Shown here one piece after another: positions 9 through 63,711 of a stretch of DNA of 64,000 nt. The notes beneath the pieces are model-generated. The model was not told the DNA's origin and did not search any database. It worked only from the letters and a program-made list of their open reading frames with translations. The first letter of the stretch is position 1; the number at the start of each line of letters is the position of its first letter. The stretch comes from Rufibacter ruber. Its GTDB lineage: Bacteria > Bacteroidota > Bacteroidia > Cytophagales > Hymenobacteraceae. A program made the translations under genes and the position numbers. The DNA lies in assembly GCF_001647275.1 (NCBI RefSeq), contig NZ_LRMM01000001.1, positions 1-64,000 of the forward strand, in the 5' to 3' direction.

Positions 9-49
9 CCTGTTTTTCGGCCTGTTTGGCCAAACAGCGAAAAACAGAA
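9..49. repeat. PAL38 palindrome, copy 1
   Basis: This is the first copy of the 38-bp imperfect palindrome that recurs through the window. It sits immediately upstream of the M14 peptidase gene and creates a spurious TTG-initiated N-terminal extension of that reading frame. Confidence 0.75.
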
Positions 50-88
50 AAAGAAAAACATCGGCGCAAGCCGAAAGCAACGAGTAGC

Positions 89-1348
89 ATGTACGCAAGA
101 AAAGGAACAAACAAATTTACTTTATTCATCGCCGCCGCCGCGTGGCTTCTGCACGGGTGCGGCACCTCTAAAACTGCCACTAACTCAACTTCGCCCGCGC
201 CGGTCACAACCACGCAGGCGCAGACTAAGGCAGCTATCAAAAGTCCGCACATAGCCTATCAGGAGAAGCAGGCCTGGGCCTTCAATGGTGGCAGCGTGGT
301 GTTCCATAACCAGTTCGCCGGGGCGCGGCTCAACGGCGTGACGCAGGAGAACGACAGCACGTTCAGGCTGGAGATAAAGCCGGAGAACCAACCCATCAAC
401 CCCAGCCCGTGGTACGCCTTCAAAGTGTGGTCGAAAAGCCAAAAGCCTACTTACGTGAAGTTGACGTACGGCTCCAATGAGCACCGGTATTCGCCCAAGA
501 CCAGCACAGATATGCGCGCGTGGCAAGACGTACCCCAAAGTCATTTCATAGATAAGACAGGGGCGTTTTTCAAGGTGCCCGTCAGTCAGGACACCTTGAT
601 TGTGGCCGGACAGGAGATGATGACCGCCGCCATGACCTACCGCTGGATGGACAGCCTGGCCCAGAAACCTTTCCTCAAGCGGCAGACCATTGGCCAGAGC
701 TACCTGGGGCAACCCATTGAAGCGTTCAGCACCAGCGGGTCAGACGGCAAGAAACTGATGGTGGTGTTGAGCCGCCAGCATCCGCCGGAGGTAACCGGCT
801 TTATGGCCATGCAAGAGTTTGTGCGCGTGGTGACCGGAGACTCGCCGCTGGCGAAGCGGTTTAGGGAGAAATTTGAGGTGCTCATCATGCCCATGCTCAA
901 CCCAGACGGCGTGGATTTGGGCCATTGGCGCCACTCGGCGGGGGGCGTTGACCTGAAACGCGACTGGGAAACCTTCAAGCAGCCCGAGACGGTGGCGGTG
1001 CGCGATTTCATTGCCCAAAAAACGGGGGCGCAAGGTGCCAAGGTGTACTTCATGCTGGACTTCCACTCTACCCACCGCGACGTGTTCTACACCAACACCG
1101 AGACCACGCCCACCCACGTGCCCGGCTTCACCAACCGCTGGCTCAAGGCCGTAGAGGCGGCGCTGCCCAATTACAAAGCCAACATCAGACCCTCGGGCAA
1201 CGGCGGAAACGTGTCTAAGAGCTGGTTCTACCGCACCTACAACGCAGACGCCGTGACCTATGAGGTAGGCGATGACACGCCCCGCAACCAAATCAAACTG
1301 AAAGGAAGAATAGCCGCCGAAAAGATGATGGAGCTGCTGGTGCAGTAA
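89..1348 (+). CDS. M14-family zinc carboxypeptidase-like lipoprotein
   Basis: This is probably a surface- or periplasm-anchored metallopeptidase of the M14 fold. With the ATG at 89 the protein is 419 aa and begins with a lipoprotein signal ending in the lipobox LLHGC. A beta-rich N-terminal region covers about residues 60-190. The peptidase part then shows the zinc motif HPPE (about 231-234), NPDG (271-274) followed by an Arg-rich GGVDLKRDW segment, the third zinc-ligand candidate in DFHSTH (about 326), and the presumed catalytic Glu in TYEVGD (about 392). The frame stays open upstream to a TTG at 26, but that stretch is PAL38 sequence and would bury the signal peptide, so it was rejected. 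Substrate is unknown. Family call is firm; specificity is not. Confidence 0.85.
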   Translation: MYARKGTNKFTLFIAAAAWLLHGCGTSKTATNSTSPAPVTTTQAQTKAAIKSPHIAYQEKQAWAFNGGSVVFHNQFAGARLNGVTQENDSTFRLEIKPENQPINPSPWYAFKVWSKSQKPTYVKLTYGSNEHRYSPKTSTDMRAWQDVPQSHFIDKTGAFFKVPVSQDTLIVAGQEMMTAAMTYRWMDSLAQKPFLKRQTIGQSYLGQPIEAFSTSGSDGKKLMVVLSRQHPPEVTGFMAMQEFVRVVTGDSPLAKRFREKFEVLIMPMLNPDGVDLGHWRHSAGGVDLKRDWETFKQPETVAVRDFIAQKTGAQGAKVYFMLDFHSTHRDVFYTNTETTPTHVPGFTNRWLKAVEAALPNYKANIRPSGNGGNVSKSWFYRTYNADAVTYEVGDDTPRNQIKLKGRIAAEKMMELLVQ

Positions 1349-1384
1349 CCGTTTTCCGCCGTGGGCGGAAGGGAATGCTTTTTT

Positions 1385-1423
1385 CTGTTTTCGGGCTGTT
1401 TTCAGAAAAACAGGTCAAAAACG
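1385..1423. repeat. PAL38 palindrome, copy 2
   Basis: Imperfect palindrome between the convergent ends of the M14 gene (+) and the GNAT gene (-). It has T-rich and A-rich arms and a TCAG loop. Confidence 0.8.
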
Positions 1424-1430
1424 CCTTTGG

Positions 1431-1904
1431 CTAATGCTGGCCATTTGCCGGTGCCGCATACATAGTAGGCTGGTGCACCTGCATGAACCGCTCTGGCTGG
1501 GTAAGCGGGGTGAAGCCGCATTGGGCGTAGAGGGCGTGGGCATCGGCGGTGGCGAGCATCCAGCGGCGCAGGCCCTGCAGCTCCGGGTGCGCCTGCAGCG
1601 CTTGTACCATCCACTTGGCCAGGCCTTTCCGCTGGTGTTCCTCCAGCACAAACACATCGCAGAGGTAGGCGAAGGTGGTGTAGTCGGTGACCAATCGGGC
1701 GAAGCCCGCTTGCCTGCCTTCAAAGTACACGCCCACGCACAGCGAGTGCTCAACGGCGCGGGCCACGGTTTCTTTGGGGATGCCGGGCGACCAGTAGGTC
1801 TGGGACAGGAACCCGTGGATGACCTCTAGCTGCAGCAGCTCTTTGTCAAAGCTCAGGAGGTAGCTTTGTTCGTTGGCTATGGGGGCGGGGGTGAGAAGTG
1901 ACAT
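1431..1904 (-). CDS. GNAT-family N-acetyltransferase
   Basis: Predicted cytoplasmic acetyl-CoA-dependent N-acetyltransferase of 157 aa, the usual size for a single GNAT domain. The acetyl-CoA pyrophosphate loop is visible as QRKGLA (91-96) after the beta-strand DVFVLEE. The C-terminal motif DAHALYAQCGF (121-131) is the usual GNAT segment holding the conserved Tyr. The substrate cannot be inferred. The protein starts at an ATG with no clear Shine-Dalgarno sequence. Its 3' end nearly abuts PAL38 copy 2, and the next gene upstream on the same strand (yeiH-like) ends 64 bp away, so co-transcription is possible. Confidence 0.85.
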   Translation of the reverse strand: MSLLTPAPIANEQSYLLSFDKELLQLEVIHGFLSQTYWSPGIPKETVARAVEHSLCVGVYFEGRQAGFARLVTDYTTFAYLCDVFVLEEHQRKGLAKWMVQALQAHPELQGLRRWMLATADAHALYAQCGFTPLTQPERFMQVHQPTMYAAPANGQH

Positions 1905-1968
1905 GGCAGAAAAAGTTACGAACTGGTTTTACCCTGTTTTACGCAAAACGGCTCCAAAACGCGGTAAT

Positions 1969-2904
1969 CTACTGAAGAATGGCGAATAAACTGCCGGTGC
2001 CCAGCAACAGCCACAGCAACAGGCCCATCAAAAGCGGCCGTATTCCCAGCGTTTTGAGGGCACTCCACACCAAGCCGGAGCCTGCTAAGAAAAGGGTGAG
2101 CGTAAGGGTGCGTTTGGCCAACGCGGCTATGAATGTAAACGCCGGGGTGAAAGAGGCGGGGGCGTAGGTGTTGAGCAGCATGGCCAAAACAAAGGCCCCA
2201 ATGAAGTATGGAACGGTGATTTTTCCGCCGCCGGCGGGCTGGAAACGCCACGCCGTGAGCACCGCCACCGGAATAATCCAGAGCGCCCGCGCCATTTTCA
2301 CCGTGGTGGCCAGCTGCAGGGCGGCCTCGCCGTAACTCTGGCCGGCGCCAACCACAGAGCTGGTGTCATGAATGGCCAGCGCCGCCCACACGCCAAACTG
2401 CGCCTGGCTCAGGTGCAGCCGGTGCCCCAGCCACGGGAATACAACCAGCGCCACCGAGTTCAGCAGAAACACAATGCCCAGCGAAAGGCTCATCTGCTTT
2501 TCCTGGGCCTGCACCAGCGGCGAGACGGCGGCAATGGCGCTTCCGCCGCAGATAGCGGTGCCTACCGCCACCAGGTAAGCGGTGGTGTTCTCTACCTTGA
2601 GCCATTTGCCCAGCACAAAACCCACCAAAAGCGTGAAGCAGATGGAGGCAACGGTCAACGTAAAGCCGGTGCTGCTGGCCTGCACCGCCGCCTGCGCATT
2701 CATCCCGAAGCCCAGCCCCACAATACTCAGCTGCAGCAGCTTCTTGGTGAGCGCAGGGGTGGCCTGCCGGAAGGGATTGCCCGTGGTGTTGGCCAACAGC
2801 ACCCCCAGCCCCAGCGCCACCGGCGGACTCACCCACGGCGTAAGGCAACAGGCACCGGCCAGAATGAAAGCAGGTTGGGCAACAAAGAAAAGGCGGGCAG
2901 ACAT
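1969..2904 (-). CDS. yeiH: YeiH/UPF0324-family putative sulfate exporter
   Basis: Integral inner-membrane protein of 311 aa with about nine to ten hydrophobic segments, matching the YeiH (PSE, UPF0324) family length. Diagnostic motifs are GTAICGGSAIAA (about 115-126) and AIHDTSSVVGAG (about 177-188). Members are annotated as putative sulfate exporters; that function is family knowledge and weakly established. A LysR-type regulator lies 73 bp upstream on the same strand. In many bacteria this family is paired with a LysR regulator (YeiE-like), although usually divergently, so the regulatory link here is inferred from adjacency. Confidence 0.85.
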   Translation of the reverse strand: MSARLFFVAQPAFILAGACCLTPWVSPPVALGLGVLLANTTGNPFRQATPALTKKLLQLSIVGLGFGMNAQAAVQASSTGFTLTVASICFTLLVGFVLGKWLKVENTTAYLVAVGTAICGGSAIAAVSPLVQAQEKQMSLSLGIVFLLNSVALVVFPWLGHRLHLSQAQFGVWAALAIHDTSSVVGAGQSYGEAALQLATTVKMARALWIIPVAVLTAWRFQPAGGGKITVPYFIGAFVLAMLLNTYAPASFTPAFTFIAALAKRTLTLTLFLAGSGLVWSALKTLGIRPLLMGLLLWLLLGTGSLFAILQ

Positions 2905-2977
2905 GCAACAACATTTTGGCTAATGCCTGCAAGGTAGCGGGAGGTTATTCCCCAGTCAAATGACAAATGGTGATAAG

Positions 2978-3877
2978 CTATTCCGGTAAGTTATACTGCC
3001 GCTGCGCAAAGCGCTGGAAAAGCTGCGCCAGCCCCTCCTGCTGCCCCAGCAGCTGCACAAACCAGAACGTGCGCGCCAGGTGGAAATCCTGCGGCGGGAG
3101 CACGGCCAGCTTGCCCGCCTCCACCTCCAGTTGAATGGCGTGCGCCGAAAGCAAGGCCACACAGTCTGAGTGCTGCAGAAACGATTTGATGGTCTCTGAG
3201 GAACCCAGGTACAGGACCACGTTCAGGTCGGGTAGGCGCAGGTGGTGGGGGCGCAGGGCCTCTTCAATGACTTCCAGCGTGCCTGAGCCGCGCTCCCGCA
3301 GCACCAGCGGCTGCTGTACCAGTTCCTGAAACGTAATAGTCCCCTTCCGCGCCAGCGGATGGCCCGCCCGCACCACGGGCAGCAGCTCATCTGGCAAAAA
3401 CGGCGTGTACTGCAGTTCGCGGCGCTGGCTGGAGCCTTCCACTATGCCCAAATCTATGTGCTGGAGCAGGAGTGCCTGTTCAATGGCTTCAGTGTTGCCG
3501 TTTGCCAGCGAGAGCTGCACCTGCGGGTGCCGCTGGTAGAATTTAGACAGCACAGGGGCCAGCACGTACTGCGCAATGGTGGTGCTGGCGCCCAGGCGCA
3601 AATGCCCGCCCACCTGGTTTTTAAGTTTGCCCAGCGCAAACTGCATCTCCTCCTGCAGGGCATGCGACCTATCAGCAAAGGAGAGCAGGGTTTCGCCGGC
3701 AGGCGTGAGCTGGATGCGGTTGCCTTTGCGTAGGAAGAGCCGCAGCCCCACCTCGGCCTCCAGCTCCTGAATGCGTTTAGTGGCCGCCGGTTGCGTGATA
3801 AAAAGCTCGCCCGCGGCTTTGGTAAAGCTCAGGTGTTTGGCAACGCTTCTAAAGACAATCCAACGGAAATCCAGCAT
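2978..3877 (-). CDS. LysR-family transcriptional regulator
   Basis: DNA-binding regulator of 299 aa, the typical LTTR length. An N-terminal winged helix-turn-helix covers residues 1-60, with the family signature LSFTKAAGELFITQPAATKR. A substrate-binding domain follows, beginning near residue 90 (GHLRLGASTTIAQYVLAP). The ATG at 3877 (MLDFRWIVF) was preferred over the upstream ATG at 3922 because it puts the HTH at the normal distance from the N-terminus. It is encoded just upstream of the YeiH-type exporter, in the same direction, which suggests it controls that gene. The effector is unknown. Confidence 0.88.
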   Translation of the reverse strand: MLDFRWIVFRSVAKHLSFTKAAGELFITQPAATKRIQELEAEVGLRLFLRKGNRIQLTPAGETLLSFADRSHALQEEMQFALGKLKNQVGGHLRLGASTTIAQYVLAPVLSKFYQRHPQVQLSLANGNTEAIEQALLLQHIDLGIVEGSSQRRELQYTPFLPDELLPVVRAGHPLARKGTITFQELVQQPLVLRERGSGTLEVIEEALRPHHLRLPDLNVVLYLGSSETIKSFLQHSDCVALLSAHAIQLEVEAGKLAVLPPQDFHLARTFWFVQLLGQQEGLAQLFQRFAQRQYNLPE

Positions 3878-3975
3878 GGGCGTGGGGTGAATGTTCAGAA
3901 CAAAAAGCAACAATGCACGCAAACTCGTGAATAAAAATCATTCTGCAATATTTGCTGCCCACCGCTTTCTTAGGC

Positions 3976-4141
3976 ACGCATTTCGTTCCCCCTTCAAAGG
4001 AGGCTGGGGGATGACAAGGCCGGCAGAAGAATATAAGCGTAAATCAATTTCAAAGAAATGTGATTCTCGGGAATGGGGGGAATGCCTAATCAGCACGAGG
4101 AGTCATCCCCTACCCCCTTCAAAGGGGAACGAAATGCGTTT
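3976..4141. repeat. MITE-like element with 38-bp terminal inverted repeats
   Basis: The spacer between the LysR gene and the response regulator holds an element of about 165 bp. Its ends are near-perfect inverted repeats, each beginning ACGCATTTCGTTCCCC and ending GGGGATGAC when read inward. There is no coding capacity and no transposase. The arms are related to the CCCCCTTCA / AAAAGGGGGA palindrome near 49,390-49,420. Confidence 0.65.
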
Positions 4142-4181
4142 AGATTCCTGATTTTATGCAATTGAACAATCTGCAATTTCC

Positions 4182-4219
4182 CGTTTTCGGCCTGTTTTTC
4201 AGAAAACAGGTCAAAAACG
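4182..4219. repeat. PAL38 palindrome, copy 3
   Basis: Near-consensus copy with a TCAG loop, located 10 bp beyond the stop codon of the LytTR response regulator gene. Confidence 0.85.
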
Positions 4220-4228
4220 TATTTTAGG

Positions 4229-5032
4229 CTATCCGTCCAGCCACGTCCGGAACGCCGCCACCCGCTCCCGGCTCACCAGCACCTCTTCCTGGGTGTGGTT
4301 TCTGAGCACCAGTTTGAGGCGGCTGTTGGTGTAGTGAATAATGTCCTGAATGGCGTGCATCTGCACCAGATACCCGCGGTTGACCCTGAAAAAATGCTTT
4401 GGGTCCACCAGCTGCTCCAGCTGCTCTACAGTGTAATCAATGGCGAAGCGGCGGTTGTCTTCGGTCTGCAGAAACGTGGCCTTCTCAAAGCTGTAGAAGA
4501 AATCAATCTCCTCTACCGGCACCGCCCGCAAGTGTTCGCCCACTTTGATCACAAACCGGTTTTTGTAGGCGGGGGCGGTGGGGTGCTGCAGTTGCTGGAG
4601 CGCCTGCTGCAGGAGTTGTAAAGAAGCATCGGCCGGGGCCGAAGTGGTATTTTGGCCGGGGAGCGCCGTGGCGGTGAGCCGCTTGAATTTCTGCAGAGCT
4701 TGGGTCAGGTCTTCGTTGTCAATGGGTTTGAGCAGGTAGTCAATGCTGTTGGCTTTGAACGCGCGCAGGGCGTAGGCGTCATAGGCGGTGGTGAAGATGA
4801 TGGGGCACGTGACAGCCACCTGCTCAAAGATCTGAAAACTCAGCCCATCGCCCAGCTGGATGTCAAAGAACGCGATGTCTGGATTGGGTTCTTCTCTGAA
4901 AAAGGCCACGGCATCTTGCACTGACGGCAGTTGCGCCACCACCTGCATGGGGACTTCCTGCTGGTCTTGCAACAGGCGGGTCAGACGGCTGGCGGCCAGA
5001 GGTTCATCTTCAACAATGAGGGCGCGGAGCAT
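4229..5032 (-). CDS. LytTR-family response regulator
   Basis: Two-domain response regulator of 267 aa. The receiver domain (1-120) has the acidic pocket EDE (8-10), the phospho-acceptor Asp57 in FFDIQLGDG, and the conserved Lys102 in YLLKPI. The LytTR DNA-binding domain (about 160-265) shows VEEIDFFYSFEKATFL and FFRVNRGYLV. It is encoded downstream of, and on the same strand as, a LytS/YehU-type histidine kinase, so the two form a two-component pair. The 227-bp gap between them contains two PAL38 copies. Target genes cannot be read from this window. Confidence 0.92.
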   Translation of the reverse strand: MLRALIVEDEPLAASRLTRLLQDQQEVPMQVVAQLPSVQDAVAFFREEPNPDIAFFDIQLGDGLSFQIFEQVAVTCPIIFTTAYDAYALRAFKANSIDYLLKPIDNEDLTQALQKFKRLTATALPGQNTTSAPADASLQLLQQALQQLQHPTAPAYKNRFVIKVGEHLRAVPVEEIDFFYSFEKATFLQTEDNRRFAIDYTVEQLEQLVDPKHFFRVNRGYLVQMHAIQDIIHYTNSRLKLVLRNHTQEEVLVSRERVAAFRTWLDG

Positions 5033-5067
5033 ACGGGTTCGTTACTAGTTGTTTGTTATTCGTTGTT

Positions 5068-5105
5068 CGTTTTTGGTCTGTTTTCTGGAAAGTAGGCCAG
5101 AAACG
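5068..5105. repeat. PAL38 palindrome, copy 4
   Basis: Slightly degenerate copy (the right arm reads AGTAGGCCAGAAACG) in the gap between the response regulator and histidine kinase genes. Confidence 0.75.
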
Positions 5106-5221
5106 CAGGTAGAGGCAGGCGTTTGCCACCTAGAAATCTGTGAAACAAGAGAGCAGTTTAGCCAGCTGCGTTGATTCTGCCAACGTTTCCCTGCCTTCCG
5201 CTCTGCGGAAATAGGAGTTTG

Positions 5222-5260
5222 CGTTTTCGGCCTGTTTTTCTGAAAACCAGCGAAAACGGC
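5222..5260. repeat. PAL38 palindrome, copy 5
   Basis: Second copy in the response regulator / kinase gap. It overlaps the last base of the kinase stop codon region. Confidence 0.75.
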
Positions 5261-6303: not shown

Positions 6304-6370
6304 GGCTGGAAGTTAAGGATTTTCAGGAAAAGCGTAGAGCCCCCTTTTGCCGCTCGGGCATAATGACTTG

Positions 6371-6410
6371 CTGTTTTGGGGCTAGTTTTTGAAAAACAGC
6401 CCCAAAACAG
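6371..6410. repeat. PAL38 palindrome, copy 6
   Basis: Variant with GGGGC / GCCCC arms (CTGTTTTGGGGC ... GCCCCAAAACAG). It lies just beyond the stop codon of the TPR-protein gene. Confidence 0.8.
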
Positions 6411-6419
6411 CTTTGGCAG

Positions 6420-7052: not shown

Positions 7053-7090
7053 GTTGGTTAATGGTTAGTAGTTGTTAGTTATTAGAGATT

Positions 7091-7128
7091 CGTTTTTAGG
7101 CTGATTTCCAGAAAAGAGGTCAAAAACA
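7091..7128. repeat. PAL38 palindrome, copy 7
   Basis: Degenerate copy (CGTTTTTAGGCTGATTT / GAAAAGAGGTCAAAAAC) upstream of the TPR gene. Confidence 0.7.
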
Positions 7129-7219
7129 GGAAATGGTTGATTGCTCATTGCTGATTGTCTATTGAAGTAGTGGCACATTCCATTCACGCATTCACTCATT
7201 GAGGCCTTTACTCCTTGGC

Positions 7220-9494: not shown

Positions 9495-9536
9495 CCTGTT
9501 TTAGGCCTATATTTCTAAAAACAGGCCTAAAATAGG
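9495..9536. repeat. PAL38 palindrome, copy 8
   Basis: Variant copy (CCTGTTTTAGGCC ... GGCCTAAAATAGG) directly next to a separate GC-rich terminator hairpin. Confidence 0.75.
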
Positions 9537-18550: not shown

Positions 18551-18570
18551 TCAGCTGGGGCAGAGGTAAG

Positions 18571-18727
18571 CGCTTGTTTACATTTTAATTTTTGCCGGCG
18601 AAAACGGGGAGGAAAAGGTGCTTCTAGCCCGTTTTTTGAGCAGCATAGCAGCGCCATGGGGCGGGGCAACCGCCAAGCCAGGTTCAATTGAGGCCCGGTT
18701 GCAGCGCATAAGATAATTGTAAACGCA
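18571..18727 (+). repeat. family C MITE-like element, copy 1
   Basis: Element of about 155 bp starting CGCTTGTTTACATTTT and ending ATTGTAAACGCATGC. The conserved interior includes GCGAAAACGGGGAGG, CCCGTTTTTTGAGCAGCATA and GGTTGCAGCGCA. Four copies occur in the window. The ends form imperfect terminal inverted repeats (GCnTGTTTnCATTT). Confidence 0.65.
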
Positions 18728-18836
18728 TGCTTTTAGCGAGACACTGAGGTGATGCTGTTATTAAAGAGTGGCTAATTTGCAGCAACTTTCTATCTTTACC
18801 GCTTCCAACACACTCATTATTAATTCCTACAAACAA

Positions 18837-22990: not shown

Positions 22991-23029
22991 CGGTTTAGGC
23001 CTGTTTTTGAAAAAGTAGCCTGAAAACAG
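22991..23029. repeat. PAL38 palindrome, copy 19
   Basis: Copy located 9 bp after the stop codon of the preceding gene and immediately before a GC-rich terminator hairpin. Confidence 0.75.
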
Positions 23030-32672: not shown

Positions 32673-32822
32673 AGTATGGGCGCAGGGAACTGCCGTTTCT
32701 GGTCATGGGTAGAAGTAGCAGAAGGGGCTTGCTGTGGGGCAATTGCAACCCGTAAATCAGGAAAGGAGACAGAAGGCAAATCTGCCAACTCTCTTCTGTT
32801 CGGCTGCAGGCCGCAGAAACCA

Positions 32823-32857
32823 AAAGAGCCCGGAAATTGCGTTTCCGGGCTCTTTTT
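32823..32857 (-). terminator. terminator of the LOG-family gene
   Basis: The stem AAGAGCCCGGAAA / TTTCCGGGCTCTTT lies downstream of the LOG gene on the minus strand. Confidence 0.75.
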
Positions 32858-33756: not shown

Positions 33757-33859
33757 ATATCAGTCATGTAGTAAGCCTACCTCTGGGAAACAGACCCCTA
33801 AGGGGGCGTTTCAAGAGGTAGCGCTGGAAAAGAGTTAGGGTAAATAAGAACAGGCTTGG

Positions 33860-36403: not shown

Positions 36404-36427
36404 TCTAAGCCTGAAAAGGCCGTTGTA

Positions 36428-36467
36428 GAAGCCCCGCCGGTCTATGCCGGAGGGGCTTCTGTTTTTG
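36428..36467 (+). terminator. rho-independent terminator of queA
   Basis: The stem GAAGCCCC-GCCGG / CCGGA-GGGGCTTC is followed by TGTTTTT. It partly merges with PAL38 copy 26. Confidence 0.8.
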
Positions 36468-41580: not shown

Positions 41581-41666
41581 CGTTCTTAATTGAGAATGAT
41601 GAATTCAAAATTAAGAATTATCAATGAGGCCATTCTTAATTCCTAATTCCCAATTCTTACTTAAGG

Positions 41667-44222: not shown

Positions 44223-44567
44223 CTACTGGATATTTACTGAAAAAAATTAAAGTCTATTTTGGTACAAGTTTATGAATTGCCGCCAATTTTCATAACTCAC
44301 GGCCGCCAAATTTTACGATATTTGCAGAGCTTGGCAAACAGGCGGCAAAAGCAAACATTTGTTTTGAAGCAGGGGCGCGGCCTTTTGGGCGGCTGAGGCA
44401 AGTGCAGTACCCACGGGTGCTGCACCGGGCAACAACTCCCCCCGTGCTTATTACTCAATTTTACATTGCAAAGTTATGTGCCTGTTTCCGGGCTGTTTTT
44501 CCCAAAACAGCTCCAAAACGTTCCCAAGCCACTACTGTTGAACCTGAACTAATCATACTGCACCTAC
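44223..44567. other. spacer between DUF349 and ettA genes
   Basis: A 345-bp divergent spacer with PAL38 copy 30. The rest shows no recognised element. Confidence 0.5.
44481..44520. repeat. PAL38 palindrome, copy 30
   Basis: Copy reading CCTGTTTCCGGGCTGTTTT / AAAACAGCTCCAAAACG, 48 bp upstream of the ettA start. Confidence 0.75.
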
Positions 44568-46235: not shown

Positions 46236-46240
46236 CGCCT

Positions 46241-46277
46241 GGTTTTGTCCTGATTTCAGAAAAAGAGCCCGGAAACG
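46241..46277. repeat. PAL38 palindrome, copy 31
   Basis: Degenerate copy fused to the following GC-rich terminator. Confidence 0.6.
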
Positions 46278-46296
46278 CAGTTTCCGGGCTCTTTTG
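46263..46296. terminator. bidirectional terminator after ettA
   Basis: The stem AAGAGCCCGGAAAC / GTTTCCGGGCTCTT (one loop) is followed by TT. It separates ettA (+) from a convergent lipoprotein gene (-). It is nearly the same sequence as the terminator at 32,823. Confidence 0.8.
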
Positions 46297-46950: not shown

Positions 46951-47110
46951 AGCTTGTTTGCATTTTGATTTTGCAAGCGAAAACGGGGAGCGAAAGGTTC
47001 TTCTATAGCGTTTTTTGAGCAGCATACGCCCCACTATGGTGCGAGAAAAAAGCAACGTCAGGTTCTTTTGATACCCGTTTGCAGCGCAAAAGAAAAATTC
47101 AAACATGCTC
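46951..47110 (+). repeat. family C MITE-like element, copy 3 (best preserved)
   Basis: The terminal inverted repeats are AGCTTGTTTGCATTTT and AAAATTCAAACATGCT. The interior includes GCGAAAACGGGGAGCGAAAG, GCGTTTTTTGAGCAGCATAC and CCCGTTTGCAGCGCAAAAGA. Confidence 0.7.
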
Positions 47111-47353
47111 TAAGGTCAAAAAAGCCGGCAGCAGTGTGGGTAAAAAGAAAAAGACCTGTGGCTATTTTCTGGTTCCCGGGCCGGAGAAGTAGCACCAGGT
47201 GGCGGTGCCTGCTGGTGTAAAGGTCAGACAAATGGGGGGTGAGGCAAATACCGGAATCCTGGTATTTTGGCTATGCAGGAGGGAGGCGAACCATTGTGGT
47301 GCCTGGTGCCAGACAGATCATCTTGCCAGGAAGAATGTGTACCTTCGTCTTCT

Positions 47354-49075: not shown

Positions 49076-49205
49076 AGCAGTAGGGGTTAGGTGACTATAT
49101 AGGTGTTTTGGTATGTTTTAATATGCCTTAGAACGAAAGAATATCAGATTGGTTTATGTTCGTACACATGATTCTTTTGCTCAACGCTCTGTCAGGCCAG
49201 CCGCT

Positions 49206-49242
49206 GGTTTGGCGCTGATTTACGAAAAACAGGCCGGAAACG
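49206..49242. repeat. PAL38 palindrome, copy 33
   Basis: Degenerate left arm (GGTTTGGCGCTGATTT), intact right arm (AAAAACAGGCCGGAAACGG). Confidence 0.65.
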
Positions 49243-50093: not shown

Positions 50094-50136
50094 AGAGGCG
50101 TTTCCGGGCTCTTTTCCCGGAAACGCCTCCAAAACA
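50094..50136 (-). terminator. terminator-like hairpin after the M16 gene
   Basis: The stem GAGGCGTTTCCGGG / CCCGGAAACGCCTC has a CTCTTTT loop. It combines a strong terminator stem with a PAL38-like right end (CCAAAACAG). It lies 38 bp beyond the M16 stop codon. Confidence 0.65.
50096..50135. repeat. PAL38-like variant, copy 34
   Basis: Same position as the terminator; it shares the CGTTTCCGGGCT-TTTT layout of GGGC-type PAL38 copies. Confidence 0.45.
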
Positions 50137-53547: not shown

Positions 53548-53586
53548 TCCTGTTTTGTGTTTTCTGAAAAACAGCCCCAAAACAGG
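53548..53586. repeat. PAL38 palindrome, copy 35
   Basis: Partly decayed left arm (CCTGTTTTGTGTTTT), intact right arm (AAAAACAGCCCCAAAACAGG). Confidence 0.65.
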
Positions 53587-53667
53587 AATGACAAAGCTGA
53601 AGGGTCAGGTTCTTCCTTCCGCCGGAGCCCAAGCCGTGCACGTGCCACTTTCCTGGGAGCTAAGAGC

Positions 53668-53820
53668 GTGTATGCATTTGCCTAATGCGCTGCAAACGGA
53701 CCTAAGGACCTGATCTTGCGGTTGCCTCGCGCCAGAGTGCCGCTATGGTGCTCTAAAATTGGGATAGAAGTGCTTTTCGCTCCCCGTTTTCGCCTGCAAA
53801 ACCAAAAGTTAAAGAAGCTC
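53668..53820 (-). repeat. family C MITE-like element, copy 4 (inverted)
   Basis: On the minus strand it carries GCGAAAACGGGGAGCGAAAA, AGAGCACCATAGCGGCACTC and TCCGTTTGCAGCGCATTAGG, collinear with copies 1 and 3. Confidence 0.65.
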
Positions 53821-53887
53821 TGGTGCCACCTACTGCTGGTGTGTTGGCGGGCAGGCAAACGTTAAACATATGTTAATGGCGCTTCCT

Positions 53888-56800: not shown

Positions 56801-56847
56801 CAGAGTAGGGGGAGACGTGTCAGGTACTGCCGGGCGCGGGCTCATTC

Positions 56848-56886
56848 CTGTTTATGACCTGTTTTTGCCAAAATAGCCCTAAAACA
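56848..56886. repeat. PAL38 palindrome, copy 36
   Basis: Copy (CCTGTTTATGACCTGTTTT / AAAATAGCCCTAAAAC) merged with the following terminator. Confidence 0.7.
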
Positions 56887-56905
56887 CCTGGGGCTATTTT
56901 TTTTC
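56870..56905 (+). terminator. rho-independent terminator of the TonB-type receptor gene
   Basis: The stem AAATAGCCC / GGGCTATTT has an 11-nt loop and is followed by a run of eight T residues. The right arm of PAL38 copy 36 supplies half of the stem. Confidence 0.75.
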
Positions 56906-57015
56906 TACTGCTTGCTCTTTCCTGATCAGCGTGGGGCAAAGGATAATAAAACCTTATGTCATGGGAAGTTCGTACTTTGGAAGTCTGTACGGCAAGTACA
57001 GTATCATTCCCCTAT

Positions 57016-59172
<2,157 letters not shown>

Positions 59173-59194
59173 ACAGGCACCAGGTACAGCCGGG

Positions 59195-59231
59195 CGTTTT
59201 AGAGCTGTTTTTCTGAAACCAGGCCTAAAAC
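59195..59231. repeat. PAL38 palindrome, copy 37
   Basis: Copy (GCGTTTTAGAGCTGTTTT / GAAACCAGGCCTAAAACG) between the kinase gene and the convergent DUF2071 gene, overlapping the latter's last codons. Confidence 0.75.
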
Positions 59232-59956
59232 GCCTTGCTGCGCCAGGCAAGCGGAACGCCCTCCCTGACTTGCACAGGAGAGCCTTCGGCCAGAAAGACG
59301 GATTCCGGCGGCCTCTGGGTTAAAAAAGAGAAGGGTGCGCCGTAGACTTCCGCAAAATCAACCTGAACCTCAGCTTCCTGCACCGGATACACTTTCCACT
59401 GGGGGTGAACTACCTCATATGAGTTTGTTTTAGCGGCTGTAACCCGGGTGTAGCCCCAGTAATGTTCAGTGATAAACTCTTCTTCGCTGCCGGGGGCAAT
59501 GGGCACCGGAGTATTGGCGGCAGTGGCTTGCAGGTGGTGCCAGATGTTCTTTTTCCAGCTGTACCGCACGGTGAGAGCATCTTTAGAGGTGTGCCAGGAG
59601 TGCCGCATGGGCAGCGCCTCATACGCTTCTTTATACACGGCATTGGCCACCTGCGCCAGGGCGGGCTTGGGAACAATTTCCTTAAGGAACACCACCCCGC
59701 GTTTACATTGGCCCTGCTCCAGGTACGTCACATAAAACCGCAGGTTGACTTCCTCAAAATTCCGGTGGAAAGGCACCGGGATGCCTTTGAGTCTGGTATT
59801 CATAAACATGAAGCCCACCAGGCTTACATAGCAGGTGCCGTTCCAGAGGTCAAGCTCCGTACCCGCCGGGAGGTAAGGGAGGAGGAGGTCCGGGGAAACG
59901 GCATAGTTGGCAATGAGAAGCTTGCGCCATTCAGCAGTGAGAAAAGTCTTTTTCAT
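59225..59956 (-). CDS. DUF2071 (YqjF-like) protein
   Basis: Protein of 243 aa matching the DUF2071/YqjF family: LIANYAVSPDLLLPYLPAGTELDLWNG at the N-terminus, then CYVSLVGFMFMNTRLKGIPVPFHRNFEEVNLRFYV. Family structures resemble the acetoacetate decarboxylase fold, but members lack a settled activity. It is the last gene of a minus-strand cluster with a methyltransferase, an SRPBCC membrane protein and an epimerase, 16 bp after the methyltransferase stop codon. The final codons overlap PAL38 copy 37 by a few bases. Confidence 0.85.
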   Translation of the reverse strand: MKKTFLTAEWRKLLIANYAVSPDLLLPYLPAGTELDLWNGTCYVSLVGFMFMNTRLKGIPVPFHRNFEEVNLRFYVTYLEQGQCKRGVVFLKEIVPKPALAQVANAVYKEAYEALPMRHSWHTSKDALTVRYSWKKNIWHHLQATAANTPVPIAPGSEEEFITEHYWGYTRVTAAKTNSYEVVHPQWKVYPVQEAEVQVDFAEVYGAPFSFLTQRPPESVFLAEGSPVQVREGVPLAWRSKAF

Positions 59957-59971
59957 AAACGGGGTTGTGGC

Positions 59972-60739
59972 TTATGGTTTTGTGCCGTAGAAGCCCGTTG
60001 CGCAGCCTTTGAACAGTTGCTGGTACGTAACGGCAAGACCCTCAGACTTAAAAATCTCAGCGGCTTCTTCAGCGTTCCTGAAGGCGTGCGTATAGTAACT
60101 CAGCATCTGGTAGTGGTGGTAGTCTTGGGCGAAACAGTAGCCTATGAGGGGAATAAGGTGTTTTAGGTAAAACAGGTACAAAGCCTGTAGCCACCCTGGT
60201 GCCGGTTCTGAGATTTCAACAAACGCAAAATGACCCCCGGGCTTCAGCAGCCGCTTAGTTTCTCTGGCCAGGCAGAGGAGCTGCTCCCTGGAGAGGGTTT
60301 TCAACCCGAACGCGCAGGTGACCACATCATAAGACATAGAGGGCAGGGGAGACCGCAAGGCATCTGCCTTGATCAGCTGGACCCGGTTGGCAAACGTGCG
60401 CCTGTTCTTGCGGGCCGCGCACTGCAGCATGCCCTCAGAGAAATCCAGCGCCTCTACCTGGGCACGCGGCCACTTGGCAAAAAGATGGGGCTACATCTCG
60501 CCCATGCCGGTCATGAGGTCTGCCACTTTCACGGCACCTTGCAAAGACGGCAGAGGCTGGAGGAACTGCCTGCGCCAGACGTACGAAAAGCCAAACGAGG
60601 TGAGGTAGTTCATGCCCTCATACGAGCTCGCCATTCCGTTGAAGAGGCTGACCAAGTATGGCTGCTGGTAATAGCGGGCCTGTTGCTTGTCTGCTGGCCG
60701 GGGCAAAGGGACGGCGGGAAACGCTAACCTGCTGCACAT
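59972..60739 (-). pseudogene. class I SAM-dependent methyltransferase (UbiE-like) with an in-frame stop
   Basis: One continuous frame of 255 codons is split by a TAG at 60,491-60,493. The upstream part has ARYYQQPYLVSLFNGMASSYEGMNYLTSFG and motif I KVADLMTGMGEM. The stop stands where Trp is expected (GEM-stop-PHL; UbiE relatives have GENWP-like sequence), so TGG to TAG is a single change. The downstream part continues with VEALDFSEGMLQCAARKN, DVVTCAFGLKTLSREQL and GGHFAFVEISEPAPG. Its start overlaps the end of the SRPBCC gene by 16 bp, showing translational coupling. The stop may be a real nonsense mutation or a base-call error. Confidence 0.8.
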
Positions 60740-61707
60740 AGGCGGCGAGATGAGAGGTGGGGGGCTTTTTCGCTTCGGGTTTTGATTATTTCTAAGATCA
60801 TCTCGTGCAGGTCATCCATCAGAAAATCTGCCCACCAGATACAGTAGAAATTGAAGGTGGTGGTGACCCGGTAGGTAGAGGTGAGGGTGAGCAGGCTTTT
60901 TGCCGGGGACAGGGCTTTGATGCGGTAGCTGCCGCTCACCACGTCAAAAAACGCGCCGCCCACCATCACGTGCTCATCTAAGGTGTTGGGCGGAATAGAA
61001 TGCCCGTCCAGGTTGACCCGGTAGGTGAAGCCTTCCCCTTCATGCCACTCCTGAATATCAAACCTGAACTGGATGCCTTTGTCCCAGGAGATGGAGCGGG
61101 TAGCGTCTGCGCCTTCTTTATCTAAATAGCCGTGCAGGGGTTTGGGCACGTGAATGAGGTGGGTAAAATGTGTCTGAATCTCTTCTGGCCGCACGTCTTT
61201 CACATGTTTCACGTGCTGCCAGACAGTTGCCTGCGGGGCGTTGACCTCAAGTGTAGTGGTAACGGTATGGAAGGCGTCTGCGGGCGTCATGTTCTGCTCC
61301 GCCACCATTATGATCAGGGGAAGCAGCAGGGAGGAATACAGCGGGGTTTTGGGCCCTTTGTAGTGCTGCCGAACCAACTGTACCACAAAGGCGGCCAGCG
61401 TGCCCAGCAGGATAAAGGGCGCCACAATAATCACCAGGCAGATGATCCCCTCCAGCTTCAGGGCGAAAGCCAGCAGCACAAACAAAAAAATACTGCCCCA
61501 CGGAATTAAAATGAGGGACTTGAAGGAGAGCATTTGCTCCCGGGTGCTGAACAGGACCGGAATAGTGCCAATGAGGAGCGGCAGAATGAACACATAGGAA
61601 ATAGAGACCAGCGTGTGGTGCTCAGAGATGATGCAGAGCGTGACAATGCCATACAGCGCGGCAAGCACAACGGCATAGGTTTTCCGGAGGTTGGGTTTGC
61701 TTTCCAT
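60724..61707 (-). CDS. membrane protein with SRPBCC-like C-terminal domain
   Basis: Protein of 327 aa with about five N-terminal membrane helices (about 8-135), followed by a soluble domain (about 145-310). The pattern TTLEVNAPQATVWQHVKHVKDV, RSISWDKGIQFRFDIQEW and LLTLTSTYRVTTTFNFYCIW resembles the START/SRPBCC (polyketide-cyclase-like) ligand-binding fold. It may bind a hydrophobic ligand at the membrane. It starts 13 bp after the epimerase stop codon and overlaps the methyltransferase start, so it belongs to the same operon. No characterised homologue is recognised. Confidence 0.75.
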   Translation of the reverse strand: MESKPNLRKTYAVVLAALYGIVTLCIISEHHTLVSISYVFILPLLIGTIPVLFSTREQMLSFKSLILIPWGSIFLFVLLAFALKLEGIICLVIIVAPFILLGTLAAFVVQLVRQHYKGPKTPLYSSLLLPLIIMVAEQNMTPADAFHTVTTTLEVNAPQATVWQHVKHVKDVRPEEIQTHFTHLIHVPKPLHGYLDKEGADATRSISWDKGIQFRFDIQEWHEGEGFTYRVNLDGHSIPPNTLDEHVMVGGAFFDVVSGSYRIKALSPAKSLLTLTSTYRVTTTFNFYCIWWADFLMDDLHEMILEIIKTRSEKAPHLSSRRLCAAG

Positions 61708-61719
61708 GGGGCGGGTGGG

Positions 61720-62733
61720 CTACGCTTGCTGTTGAAACCGTTGGCCCAGGCCTTGAAAAGAACCAGACTGGGCGTTTCTGGCCTGTTTTTCAGAAAACGG
61801 CTCCAAAACAGGCGCGGCTTTGGGCGGAAGGCACAAGGCTACCGCCTCTTCAATGGTGTCCACCTGGAACCGGTAGCCCGCCTGCAACAGCCGGGCGGGG
61901 GCCACCCACCGGCTTTTCAGGAGCAGTTCCGTCTCGGTTCGCAGGAGCCAGGCCCCCACCTCCAGCATCCATTTTCTGGCCCGCAACCCAAAGCCCCGCC
62001 CCAAAGCGTTCCGGACGGTCTGCATGAAGAGGTGGTTGGGCACCGGCCGCGGGGCGGCGAGGTTGAAATCGCCTTCCAGCTCTTCGTGCTGAATCAGGAA
62101 CTCCAGGCTGTTGATCAGGTCCTGGGCGTGAATCCAGCTGAAGCACTGCAGGCCGTTGCCCTGCCTTCCACCTAAACCAAAACGGGCCAGGTTCAGGTAG
62201 TACGGCATCACGCCGCCGCCTTGGGCCAGCACTATGGCCAGGCGCAGCCCAATCTTGCGGGTGCCGGGGGTATGCTGGGAGTAGAACGCGTTTTCCCATT
62301 TGGTGCAGACCTCCACAGAGAAACCGGTGCCCACTTCCCCGGTCAGTTCGTCCTGCGGACCGTCTAGGGCATGGCGGTAAATGGTGGCAGAGGCTGCGTT
62401 GACCCAGAGCGGGGGCGGGCTTTGCAGTTGCCGAACGGCCTCGCCCAGCACCTGCGTGGCATTTACCCGGGAAGAGATGATGGCGCGCCTGTTCTTCTGG
62501 GTATAGCGGCAGTTCACGCTCTTGCCGGTGAGGTTGATCAGGACATCTGCCTTCTCCAGATGCTGCACCCAGGGGCCCAGGTGGGTGGCATCCCACTGCA
62601 CGTGCCGCGCCGGGGTCTGCCGGGCAGAGGGTTTTCTGGTGAGAAGGATGACCTCATCTCCTTTGCCGGTGAAATGCTGGGAGAGCAACTGACCTATAAA
62701 GCCGCTGCCGCCCGCTATTATGATCTTGGCCAT
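61720..62733 (-). CDS. TIGR01777-family NAD(P)-dependent epimerase
   Basis: Extended SDR of 337 aa of the YfcH/SDR39U1 type. The dinucleotide-binding motif GGSGFIGQLLSQHF is near the N-terminus, then VLINLTGKSVNCRYT, SASATIYRHALDG and a conserved SWIHAQDLINSLEFL. The C-terminal DUF1731-like part includes ARKWMLEVGAWLLRTETELL. Members are usually about 295-305 aa; here the C-terminus is longer because the natural end runs into PAL38 copy 38 (61,772-61,809), which adds about 30 residues (VLEPFSEKQARNAQ then SGSFQGLGQRF). It is the first enzyme gene of the gbsR-led cluster. Confidence 0.9.
   Translation of the reverse strand: MAKIIIAGGSGFIGQLLSQHFTGKGDEVILLTRKPSARQTPARHVQWDATHLGPWVQHLEKADVLINLTGKSVNCRYTQKNRRAIISSRVNATQVLGEAVRQLQSPPPLWVNAASATIYRHALDGPQDELTGEVGTGFSVEVCTKWENAFYSQHTPGTRKIGLRLAIVLAQGGGVMPYYLNLARFGLGGRQGNGLQCFSWIHAQDLINSLEFLIQHEELEGDFNLAAPRPVPNHLFMQTVRNALGRGFGLRARKWMLEVGAWLLRTETELLLKSRWVAPARLLQAGYRFQVDTIEEAVALCLPPKAAPVLEPFSEKQARNAQSGSFQGLGQRFQQQA
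61772..61809. repeat. PAL38 palindrome, copy 38 (inside coding sequence)
   Basis: The only copy located well inside an open reading frame. It forms codons of the epimerase C-terminal extension (GCGTTTCTGGCCTGTTTT / GAAAACGGCTCCAAAACAG). Confidence 0.8.
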
Positions 62734-62807
62734 ACGGGTATGAATTAAGTGTTGTAATGTTTTGAACTTTCAGAAAACAATGAAACATAAAAGGCAAAAA
62801 AATAGCG

Positions 62808-63314
62808 CTACTTGAACAGCTTGAAAATAGACCCGAAGAACCAGTTCTCCTCGGCTTTCAGCATGGTCTCCAGGGTTTTGTCCACGTTGGTGGCTAGTTT
62901 GTTAATATCGGTCACAGAGGTTTTAAAGGTTTTGTATTCTGGGTCCTGCTCGTCACCCTCTACCGCCTGCAGCTGGTTCAGGAGCTTGAGCACCGGTTCC
63001 AGTTCGCGGCGCTTGCGCTCTTTGGCCACCTGGCGGGCAATGTACCACACGTCTTTCTCGGCGTAGAAATATTCCTTGCGCTCGCCGCTGCGGTGCTGCT
63101 TCTCCACCAGGCCCCAGTTTATCAGATCACGCAGGGTCATGTTGGCGTTGCCGCGCGAAATCTGCAGCTGCTCCATGACCTGCTCAGTGGTCAAGGCCTC
63201 CGGCGAAATCAGGAGCAGGGCGTGCACCTGGGCCATGGTGCGGTTAATACCCCACTCAGACCCCAGCTTGCCCCAGGCTTCAATGAATTTCTGTTTGGCC
63301 TCTGCTAATTCCAT
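62808..63314 (-). CDS. GbsR/MarR-type transcriptional regulator
   Basis: DNA-binding protein of 168 aa resembling the GbsR group of the MarR superfamily. The winged helix-turn-helix (about 35-95) reads LTTEQVMEQLQISRGNANMTLRDLINWGLVEKQHRSGERKEYF. A helical dimerisation tail ends NWFFGSIFKLFK. It lies 74 bp upstream of the epimerase gene on the same strand, so it probably heads and regulates the cluster. The -7 element sits only 4 bp before the ATG, so the mRNA may be leaderless. The inducer is unknown. Confidence 0.88.
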   Translation of the reverse strand: MELAEAKQKFIEAWGKLGSEWGINRTMAQVHALLLISPEALTTEQVMEQLQISRGNANMTLRDLINWGLVEKQHRSGERKEYFYAEKDVWYIARQVAKERKRRELEPVLKLLNQLQAVEGDEQDPEYKTFKTSVTDINKLATNVDKTLETMLKAEENWFFGSIFKLFK

Positions 63315-63318
63315 GGCC

Positions 63319-63349
63319 CAAAGGTATAGAAGTTTTTAAACTTTCAAAA
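63319..63349 (-). promoter_or_regulatory. Bacteroidota-type promoter of gbsR-like gene
   Basis: On the minus strand, TTTTG (63,345-63,349) and TACCTTTG (63,319-63,326) are separated by 18 bp. The start codon follows the -7 box by 4 bp, so the transcript should begin at or very near the ATG. Confidence 0.6.
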
Positions 63350-63451
63350 TTTATTGAAATATACTTTTGCAGTAAGTAAAAGGTTGCGGCTGCGCCGAAT
63401 TTTTCCGGAACTATTTTATAAGCCGTTCCTGGCCTCATGCTTGTGCACGGG

Positions 63452-63491
63452 CGTTTTTAGGCTGTTTTCCGGAAAACAGCCTAAAAAAACG
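63452..63491. repeat. PAL38 palindrome, copy 39
   Basis: Near-perfect AGGCT-type copy (GCGTTTTTAGGCTGTTTT / AAAACAGCCTAAAAAAACGC). Confidence 0.85.
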
Positions 63492-63672
63492 CAAAAGCGG
63501 TGTTCCTTCTCCATAGGGAGAAGGGTAGGATGAGGGAGAGGCGGTTCAAGTAGTAAGGGCTACGGCTACTGGCGCAGACCCTGGCAGGTCTGGGAGACAC
63601 TGCGAAGTCTTGTGAGCGCGCTAGACAGCAGAGGCAAAAGCAACGGGGGCTACCTTCCCCCGGAGGGGGATC

Positions 63673-63711
63673 TCTGTTTTTTGCCTGTTTTTCTGAAAAC
63701 AGCAAAAAGCG
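63673..63711. repeat. PAL38 palindrome, copy 40
   Basis: Copy reading CTGTTTTTTGCCTGTTTT / GAAAACAGCAAAAAGCGG. Confidence 0.75.

What the first reader, a model, noticed from the sequence alone, without database searches (positions are those of the whole stretch)
9..63711. PAL38: about 40 copies of a 38-bp intergenic palindrome, one per 1.6 kb
Seen directly: nearly every longer spacer holds one or more copies of CGTTTTnGGCCTGTTTT - 4-nt loop - AAAACAGGCCnAAAACG. Arms co-vary between copies (GGCC/GGCC, GGGGC/GCCCC, AGGCT/AGCCT), which suggests selection for base pairing rather than plain copying. Each copy is T-rich on its 5' arm and A-rich on its 3' arm on both strands and lacks a following U-tract, so it is not a standard terminator. 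The density is far above that of a typical REP family. Possible roles include mRNA 3'-end protection, DNA cruciform or nucleoid-protein sites, or ends of a non-autonomous element moved by a REP-associated transposase (RAYT) encoded elsewhere.
Basis: partly seen in the sequence, partly recalled or inferred. Interest (0 to 1): 0.88.

Follow-up and report, generated by a model that had tools for sequence, protein, structure and literature searches.

The report
Palindromic DNA marks at gene ends
Bacteria of the genus Rufibacter carry a 38-base palindrome roughly once per two thousand bases, mostly between genes and often just after them; the sequence evidence favours a protein reading it on double-stranded DNA rather than an RNA hairpin, and what that protein is remains unknown.

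Summary
PAL38 is real. The window holds 36 copies (22-bit cut); 593 lie in 1.257 Mb of its 5.5-Mb genome, so about 2,600 by extrapolation. It belongs to Rufibacter: all 16 genus genomes searched have it, against 0-3 hits per genome in 104 family relatives and none in 394 others of the phylum. Copies mark transcription-unit ends: 42 of 51 convergent gaps of 60-200 bp have one, against 3 of 28 divergent gaps, and 2 of 166 co-directional gaps under 60 bp.

Gene-oriented copies prefer G-U over A-C in only one of three species, although terminator-like repeats in such gaps clearly do (59:21). RAYTs do not track it. The spacer is 4 bp in 570 of 593 copies. Sites persist at orthologous places while the consensus shifts genome-wide between species. 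Flanking GC oscillates near helical period to about 48 bp from the dyad.

Best reading: a duplex DNA site for a DNA-bending or wrapping protein at transcription-unit ends. No protein was identified.

The parts
1386..1423 (.). PAL38 copy, convergent gap
   Evidence: 55.1 bits, spacer 4
1924..1961 (.). PAL38 copy, 7 nt after a stop codon (co-directional gap)
   Evidence: 39.1 bits
4182..4219 (.). PAL38 copy, 9 nt after a stop codon
   Evidence: 54.2 bits
5068..5105 (.). PAL38 copy, one of two in this gap
   Evidence: 44.9 bits; G051 holds one copy in the orthologous gap
5222..5259 (.). PAL38 copy directly after a stop codon
   Evidence: 31.4 bits
6372..6409 (.). PAL38 copy
   Evidence: 49.1 bits; orthologous gap of G051 holds a copy
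7091..7128 (.). PAL38 copy
   Evidence: 45.4 bits; orthologous gap of G051 holds a copy
9497..9534 (.). PAL38 copy
   Evidence: 40.7 bits
10154..10191 (.). PAL38 copy
   Evidence: 49.8 bits
11872..11909 (.). PAL38 copy, first of three in one gap called divergent
   Evidence: 47.1 bits
12068..12105 (.). PAL38 copy
   Evidence: 49.0 bits
12263..12300 (.). PAL38 copy
   Evidence: 47.9 bits
15230..15267 (.). PAL38 copy, 3 nt after a stop codon
   Evidence: 45.1 bits
16754..16791 (.). PAL38 copy, convergent gap
   Evidence: 53.9 bits
17203..17240 (.). PAL38 copy, convergent gap
   Evidence: 53.5 bits
22222..22259 (.). PAL38 copy, 11 nt after a stop codon
   Evidence: 46.7 bits; none found in the orthologous G012 gap
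22991..23028 (.). PAL38 copy, convergent gap
   Evidence: 42.9 bits
27751..27788 (.). PAL38 copy abutting a stop codon, convergent gap
   Evidence: 38.0 bits
30970..31007 (.). PAL38 copy
   Evidence: 48.2 bits
31384..31421 (.). PAL38 copy
   Evidence: 49.9 bits
32634..32671 (.). PAL38 copy
   Evidence: 46.7 bits
32840..32877 (.). PAL38 copy whose left arm is also the 3' arm of a terminator-like hairpin at 32822-32856
   Evidence: 40.9 bits
36460..36497 (.). PAL38 copy, all 17 pairs matched; a terminator-like hairpin 36427-36460 abuts it
   Evidence: 59.3 bits
39456..39493 (.). PAL38 copy
   Evidence: 46.2 bits
40023..40060 (.). PAL38 copy
   Evidence: 49.9 bits
40805..40842 (.). PAL38 copy in a 78-bp convergent gap
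   Evidence: 44.8 bits; the orthologous gap of G051 holds two copies
44483..44520 (.). PAL38 copy 47 nt upstream of the start of an ABC-F-like ATPase (EttA-like is my recalled label), divergent gap
   Evidence: 51.3 bits; a copy at this place also in G057, G012, G051 and, further Rufibacter
46240..46277 (.). PAL38 copy, 4 nt after the stop of that gene; right arm shared with terminator-like hairpin 46261-46295
   Evidence: 38.1 bits
48300..48337 (.). PAL38 copy, convergent gap
   Evidence: 52.5 bits; copies also in G017, G022 and G051; four other genomes have gaps over 900 bp, not shown
49205..49242 (.). PAL38 copy
   Evidence: 42.4 bits
50099..50136 (.). weak PAL38 copy overlapping inverted repeat 50095-50129
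   Evidence: 29.5 bits
56849..56886 (.). PAL38 copy, right arm also 5' stem of a terminator-like hairpin
   Evidence: 47.3 bits
59195..59232 (.). PAL38 copy in a 52-bp convergent gap
   Evidence: 45.8 bits; marked in G042, G006 and G051, not in G045, G048, G054; genes overlap in G060 and G012
61773..61810 (.). PAL38 copy inside a called gene, about 50 nt before its stop
   Evidence: 46.8 bits
63452..63489 (.). PAL38 copy
   Evidence: 48.4 bits
63675..63712 (.). weak PAL38 copy
   Evidence: 29.9 bits
33757..33859 (.). gap with what looks, by eye, like a decayed relic of PAL38; G012 and G051 hold scored copies in this gap

Best explanation
PAL38 is a dyad-symmetric duplex DNA site (two 17-bp half-sites around a fixed 4-bp centre, TTTC/GAAA edges, phased flanks) kept by selection at the ends of most transcription units in Rufibacter. 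Shown: location, copy number, fixed spacer, nearly independent arms, orthologous persistence, species dialects, phased flanks. Inferred: a sequence-specific protein binds it as a dimer or higher oligomer and bends or wraps about 90 bp of DNA. Also inferred: sitting at 3' ends, it insulates neighbouring units by stopping read-through from either side and/or fixing transcription-driven supercoils. The protein is not identified; DNA gyrase is one candidate, listed as a rival.
For: Location: 42 of 51 convergent gaps of 60-200 bp, 74 of 183 co-directional, 3 of 28 divergent, 2 of 166 co-directional gaps under 60 bp. Copy number 0.37-0.80 per kb in 19 Rufibacter samples. Spacer 4 bp in 570 of 593 copies, 138 of 143 in G012, 186 of 188 in G051. 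Half-sites seldom stand alone: 24 against 938 in pairs at 20 bits (Markov 2). Arms vary nearly independently. Own and G051 show no G-U over A-C preference, while 71 terminator-like repeats in co-directional gaps give 59:21. Orthologous gaps: own and G051 both have it in 16, one of the two in 4, neither in 17; own and G012 11, 5, 18 (Fisher p 2e-6 and 5e-5). Substitutions per site at orthologous copies: T-runs 0.12, aligned flank 0.24, degenerate positions 0.35, spacer 0.40. The inner box is CTGTTTT in own and CTCATTT in G051 (exact 16-mers: 389 against 1 in own, 0 against 126 in G051). Flanking GC oscillates with a 9-11 bp period: in own, G012 and 16 other samples pooled no shuffle of 2,000 reached it; random intergenic points p 0.28.
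Against: No protein is known. The site is over-specified, 45-51 bits against about 11 needed for its frequency, which hints at copying or drive besides binding. A small pairing excess exists in own and G012 (13.38 against 13.03 and 13.07 against 12.78 pairs per copy), and G012 leans to G-U, 127:87. G051 flanks are phased only marginally (p 0.0065 for all, 0.0745 without inverted repeats), and a 7-bp component is also significant in own and G051. G051 arms are slightly anti-correlated. 43 of 98 divergent gaps over 200 bp also hold a copy. PAL-free stretches of up to 38 kb show genes can do without it. Genes come from a home-made caller. Named 8-kb loci were fetched for holding a match, which raises some densities.
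Confidence: 0.55

Rival explanations
1. The sites are built-in binding or cleavage sites for DNA gyrase (or another type IIA topoisomerase), which removes positive supercoils at transcription-unit ends.
For: The E. coli gyrase motif is symmetric about a 4-bp stagger, has a central part from -16 to +19 and flanks with 10.75-bp GC periodicity, and cleavage sites are enriched downstream of highly transcribed operons (PMC6379681, passages). PAL38 is 17-4-17, with phased flanks at unit ends.
Against: The E. coli gyrase motif is called degenerate, whereas PAL38 has 45-51 bits. Phasing fades by about 48 bp from the dyad and is marginal in G051. Gyrase is universal (recalled) while PAL38 is genus-bound and changes dialect.
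Confidence: 0.2
2. An RNA hairpin at mRNA 3' ends: terminator, exonuclease barrier or processing signal.
For: 3'-end location; arms match at 13.4 of 17 positions on average. In samples of 36 or more copies, 0-14% have an arm that also forms a terminator-like stem with an outer arm. Of 277 single-copy co-directional gaps in three species, 191 lack a separate sense terminator. G012 shows G-U 127 against A-C 87.
Against: Little covariation; 154 compensatory against 2,184 single-arm changes between orthologues. No G-U preference in own and G051. No U-tract follows. Separate terminators are as common in gaps with as without PAL38 (own convergent 39 of 70 against 6 of 12).
Confidence: 0.15
3. A REP-like palindrome family spread, and perhaps still moved, by a RAYT-type transposase.
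For: Repeated and intergenic, between convergent and unidirectional genes like known REPs (PMC3733652, passages). Two of three RAYT-like genes of the genome have PAL38 on both sides. Over-specified sequence.
Against: No GTAG or CGTC tag at the feet (GTAG near 18 of 582 own copies, 23 of 582 at 50-60 nt). Y1 transposases occur in all 6 genera sampled while PAL38 is in numbers in one, and G017 has none. Orthologous places are kept in other dialects. Long AT-rich stretches lack copies.
Confidence: 0.15
4. An uptake-signal-like sequence kept by molecular drive through DNA uptake and recombination.
For: DUS occurs in thousands of copies, has species dialects and forms inverted pairs linked to terminators (PMC3630211, passages). 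PAL38 shows dialects, over-specification, and is missing from some AT-rich stretches.
Against: Lone half-sites are rare and copies inside called genes are 16 of 593, whereas intragenic DUS are common. The unit is a 38-bp dyad with phased flanks. No competence data.
Confidence: 0.1

Closest known systems
REP / BIME elements (GTAG- or CGTC-tagged)
   Same: Short (20-40 bp) intergenic palindromes in many copies, mostly between convergent or unidirectional genes.
   Different: No one-sided tag, presence does not follow Y1/RAYT genes across genomes, orthologous places kept across species, no wobble-pair preference in two of three species.
DNA uptake sequence dialects of Neisseriaceae
   Same: Thousands of copies per genome, species dialects, inverted pairs at gene ends.
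   Different: The unit here is a 38-bp dyad with a fixed 4-bp centre; lone half-sites and intragenic copies are rare.
Gyrase sites of E. coli (Topo-seq motif, BIME-2)
   Same: Dyad about a 4-bp centre, central part of about 36 bp, phased GC flanks, enriched downstream of transcription units.
   Different: Far more sequence-specific, genus-restricted, dialect-forming; cleavage not tested.
Bidirectional intrinsic terminators
   Same: Occupy the same places; some share an arm with PAL38.
   Different: The arm order is inside out (T-rich 5' arm, A-rich 3' arm, no following U-tract), and separate terminators coexist.

Membership tests
REP element | Palindromic, 20-40 bp, high-copy, extragenic | tested here: met
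REP element | GTAG or CGTC tag, unpaired, at one end | tested here: not met
   GTAG beside 18 of 582 own copies against 23 of 582 at 50-60 nt; CGTC 15 against 10; no excess in G012 or G051 either. Feature taken from PMC3733652 (passages)
REP element | Association with a RAYT gene | tested here: inconclusive
   Two RAYT-like genes have copies on both sides, but presence across genomes does not match and G017 has no Y1 match
REP element | Mobility (filled and empty sites) | tested here: inconclusive
   One search shows retention and one apparent relic; no clean insertion seen by eye among the few one-species sites; no close strains available
Intrinsic terminator | G+C-rich hairpin followed by a U-tract | tested here: not met
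   A-rich 3' arm then GAAA; T4 within 30 nt after the element in 78 of 344 co-directional copies, A4 in 76
RNA hairpin under selection | Compensatory changes, and G-U tolerated over A-C on the transcribed strand | tested here: not met
   calibrated; exceptions: G012 (127:87) and a small pairing excess in own and G012
DUS/USS | Short non-palindromic unit (about 10-12 bp, recalled), abundant as single copies | tested here: not met
   Lone half-sites 24 against 938 paired
DUS/USS | Raises DNA uptake or transformation | not testable with these tools
   needs experiment
Gyrase site | Dyad about a 4-bp stagger with phased flanks | tested here: met
   phasing marginal in G051
Gyrase site | Cleavage by gyrase in vivo | not testable with these tools
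   needs Topo-seq

The most novel reading that the evidence does not exclude
Rufibacter uses a dedicated DNA-wrapping boundary protein that marks most transcription-unit ends at some 2,000 or more sites of nearly 50 bits, and sites and protein co-evolve as dialects within the genus: a bacterial, DNA-level gene-end system unlike intrinsic or Rho termination.
Probability: 0.3. Interest if true: 0.92.

Novelty: new variant of a known kind. Interest (0 to 1): 0.72.

Why it matters
Bacterial transcription units are generally thought to end by RNA signals or Rho (recalled). A genus in which most convergent gene pairs share one DNA-level mark, at sites that persist in place while their letters drift together, would be a testable case of a gene-end boundary protein or of systematic topoisomerase placement. 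It is also a natural experiment on how thousands of sites change dialect without losing their positions.

Tried and rejected
Arm covariation as proof of pairing: rejected on the counts; the residual +0.35 pair per copy in own is unexplained (subfamilies or weak structure). A tripartite left-right-left attenuator (PAL38 arm shared with a terminator): striking at the ABC-F gene and gap A, but only 17 of 603 own copies (shuffled 11) and at most 13-14% in G017 (6 of 45), G022 (5 of 37) and G063 (2 of 14); G057 has 4 of 8 with 2 in the shuffle; G006, G060, G054 and roseus 0. So it is not the general rule. PAL38 as a replacement for missing terminators: not supported. RAYT as the mover: does not track presence. 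Rfam: no match in the window at gathering scores; no tRNA. Fixed spacing between neighbouring copies: none evident by eye. The first orthologue comparison probably mixed in non-orthologous matches and was replaced, whose 436 present against 16 gapped is conditional on alignable flanks on both sides. The R1 model search of the own genome scored only 150 of 9,640 candidates, so it gives no count. One search ended with a script error after its counts; one search did the missing part. only wrote a file.

Rows dropped: one search aligned 31 of the 41 window sites, chosen by hand (ten left out: other spacers and mostly lower scores; two, 32840 and 46240, score as high as some that were kept). Searches use only spacer-4 copies (571, 583, and 563 with full gene context for own). 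Genes come from my own hexamer-based caller (68-73% coding), which misses genes, so gaps over 400 bp are unreliable.
Full report
What is there. The window holds a family of 38-bp palindromes, consensus YGTTTTNGGSCTGTTTT-YNNR-AAAACAGSCCNAAAACR, with weaker TTTC and GAAA edges (column frequencies). A matrix learned in the window finds 41 paired sites above 14 bits; 17 of 20 shuffles give 0 and three give 4, 2 and 1. A matrix learned on the larger sample finds 36 at 22 bits or more. In 1.257 Mb of the genome (window plus 60 stretches, of 5.5 Mb) there are 593 copies at 25 bits, 570 with a 4-nt spacer; scaled up, about 2,600. The exact core has 646 hits counting both strands, and the nearly full palindrome with up to 2 mismatches 1,152 places. 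The Markov control for the first 458 kb has 0 at 25 bits.

Who has it. Among 120 genomes of the family, all 16 of the genus (own included) have the strict motif, and of the 104 others one has a single hit. With a looser motif, three others have 1-3 hits. Among 394 other genomes of the phylum none has the nearly full palindrome. Samples of 19 Rufibacter sets show 0.37-0.80 copies per kb, some from only 20 kb, and some pooled with loci that were fetched for holding a match. Differences in strict counts (5 to 646) are therefore mostly differences in dialect.

Where it sits. By my own gene calls, 16 of 593 copies lie inside genes and 16 at stretch edges. Convergent gaps of 60-200 bp hold a copy in 42 of 51 cases, co-directional ones in 74 of 183, divergent ones in 3 of 28; co-directional gaps under 60 bp in 2 of 166. 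Larger divergent gaps hold one in 43 of 98. In co-directional gaps a quarter of the copies start within 17 nt of the stop codon, and the 10th percentile of distance to the next start is 55 nt. Separate intrinsic terminators are about as frequent in gaps with and without PAL38 (own convergent 39 of 70 and 6 of 12; co-directional 53 of 162 and 30 of 157; shuffled gaps 16, 2, 31 and 7). PAL38 therefore marks unit ends without simply replacing terminators.

RNA or DNA. Tested: 31 of the 41 window sites score 0.140 against 0.152 in shuffles. 206 copies have 2,767 Watson-Crick pairs against 2,707 +/- 14, and 571 have 7,644 against 7,446 +/- 24, an excess of 0.35 pair per copy carried mainly by positions 1, 7 and 10; a dereplicated set of 120 has 1,406 against 1,420. 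At position 10, C and G are about equally frequent in each arm, and 79 of 206 copies have C opposite C or G opposite G. G051 even has slightly fewer matches than chance (2,450 against 2,487 +/- 14). If the transcript hairpin mattered, G-U should beat A-C on the transcribed strand: own 312 to 366, G051 100 to 113, G012 127 to 87. Seventy-one terminator-like repeats from co-directional gaps, found by a Watson-Crick-only rule, give 59 to 21, so the test has power. Between orthologous copies, 154 position pairs changed in compensation against 2,184 single-arm changes and 355 other double changes. G012 leans towards an RNA effect and own has a small pairing excess; these stand against a pure duplex reading.

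Persistence and dialects. Adjacent orthologous gene pairs between own and G051: both have PAL38 in 16, only one in 4, neither in 17; between own and G012: 11, 5, 18 (Fisher p 2e-6 and 5e-5, and 5e-5 and 1e-3 with short gaps left out). In many of these gaps the flanks look unalignable while the element stays within a few bases of the same stop codon (by eye). At gap 33757-33859 own shows what looks like a decayed copy where G012 and G051 have scored ones (by eye). In G051 the inner box is CTCATTT in place of CTGTTTT in both arms: GTTTT.GGSCTGTTTT occurs 389 times in the own sample and 0 in the 400-kb G051 sample; GTTTT.GGSCTCATTT 1 and 126. G051 does not branch off first in a tree of the ABC-F gene of 14 genomes but groups with G012, G017 and G022 (support 0.95), so its box is probably derived. 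At orthologous copies T-runs change least (0.12 per site), aligned flanks 0.24, the spacer most (0.40).

Shape of the site. Beyond the palindrome, GC content oscillates with distance from the dyad: low around 28-33, high at 34-36, weaker to about 48. The 9-11 bp component exceeds all 2,000 phase shuffles in own (1,067 flanks), G012 (255) and 16 other samples pooled (1,217), flanks with inverted repeats excluded. G051 is marginal (p 0.0745; 0.0065 with all flanks), and a 7-bp component is also significant in own and G051. Random intergenic points show nothing at 9-12 bp (p 0.28). This resembles DNA bent or wrapped on a protein, as reported for E. coli gyrase (PMC6379681, passages). The site carries 45-51 bits, far above the 11 its frequency requires; this argues for several contacts per site, or for some copying or drive in its history.

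Mobility. The genome has four Y1 transposase matches; three of them look RAYT-like (my recalled label), and two of these have PAL38 on either side, one of the four flanking copies weak at 29 bits. But 99 of 120 family genomes, from all 6 genera, have Y1 genes, and G017, with 102 strict hits, has none. No GTAG or CGTC tag marks the feet. The two longest PAL-free stretches, 25 and 38 kb, are AT-rich (GC 0.43 and 0.39) and may be recent acquisitions (inference); six others of 9-17 kb have GC 0.46-0.51. If the long ones are recent, copies do not enter new DNA fast.

Judgement. The best-supported account is a duplex DNA site for an unidentified bending or wrapping protein at unit ends. Literature: I saw listings for Rufibacter with repeat or intergenic and Hymenobacteraceae with palindrom and for palindromic intergenic repeats in Bacteroidetes; no listed title or abstract start describes this element. 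RepRanger (PMC12306157, passages) does not mention Rufibacter in its main text. Most subscription papers are not held.

Noticed in passing
window 53660-53821 (+), 46951-47117 (-), 18569-18737 (-): A second dispersed repeat of about 160 bp: 20 further matches in the 1.257-Mb own sample (18 of 69-79% identity, two short ones of 87-89%), none of them inside a called gene, and 2 and 4 matches in the 400-kb G012 and G051 samples, mostly 68-71%. No Rfam family reached its gathering score in the window. It could be a structured RNA or a miniature element.
   Followed up: partly
window 53561-53593: A 27-33 bp stretch at a weak PAL38-like site recurs at six places in the own sample, four on contig C134, one on C89, one on C13; probably PAL38-related arms, not examined.
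   Followed up: no
own genome C77:17536-55739 and C13:56674-82060: PAL38-free, AT-rich stretches (GC 0.39 and 0.43) with 12 and 10 called genes, possibly acquired islands; three convergent gaps in the first hold no copy.
   Followed up: partly
window 46261-46295 and loci L226, L229, L233-L235, L238: A terminator-like hairpin after the ABC-F gene (own AAAAGAGCCCGGAAAC...GTTTCCGGGCTCTTTT) recurs in related form behind the orthologues and shares its first arm with a PAL38 copy, suggesting the half-site may have come from a recurrent terminator arm (orientation of these loci inferred).
   Followed up: partly
window 41585-41665: An AT-rich imperfect inverted repeat (GAATTAAGAAT-like units) between two minus-strand genes, unlike the rest of the region.
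   Followed up: no
L004 350-2373: Seven PAL38 copies (20-bit cut) in about 2 kb around a RAYT-like gene, a dense cluster.
   Followed up: partly
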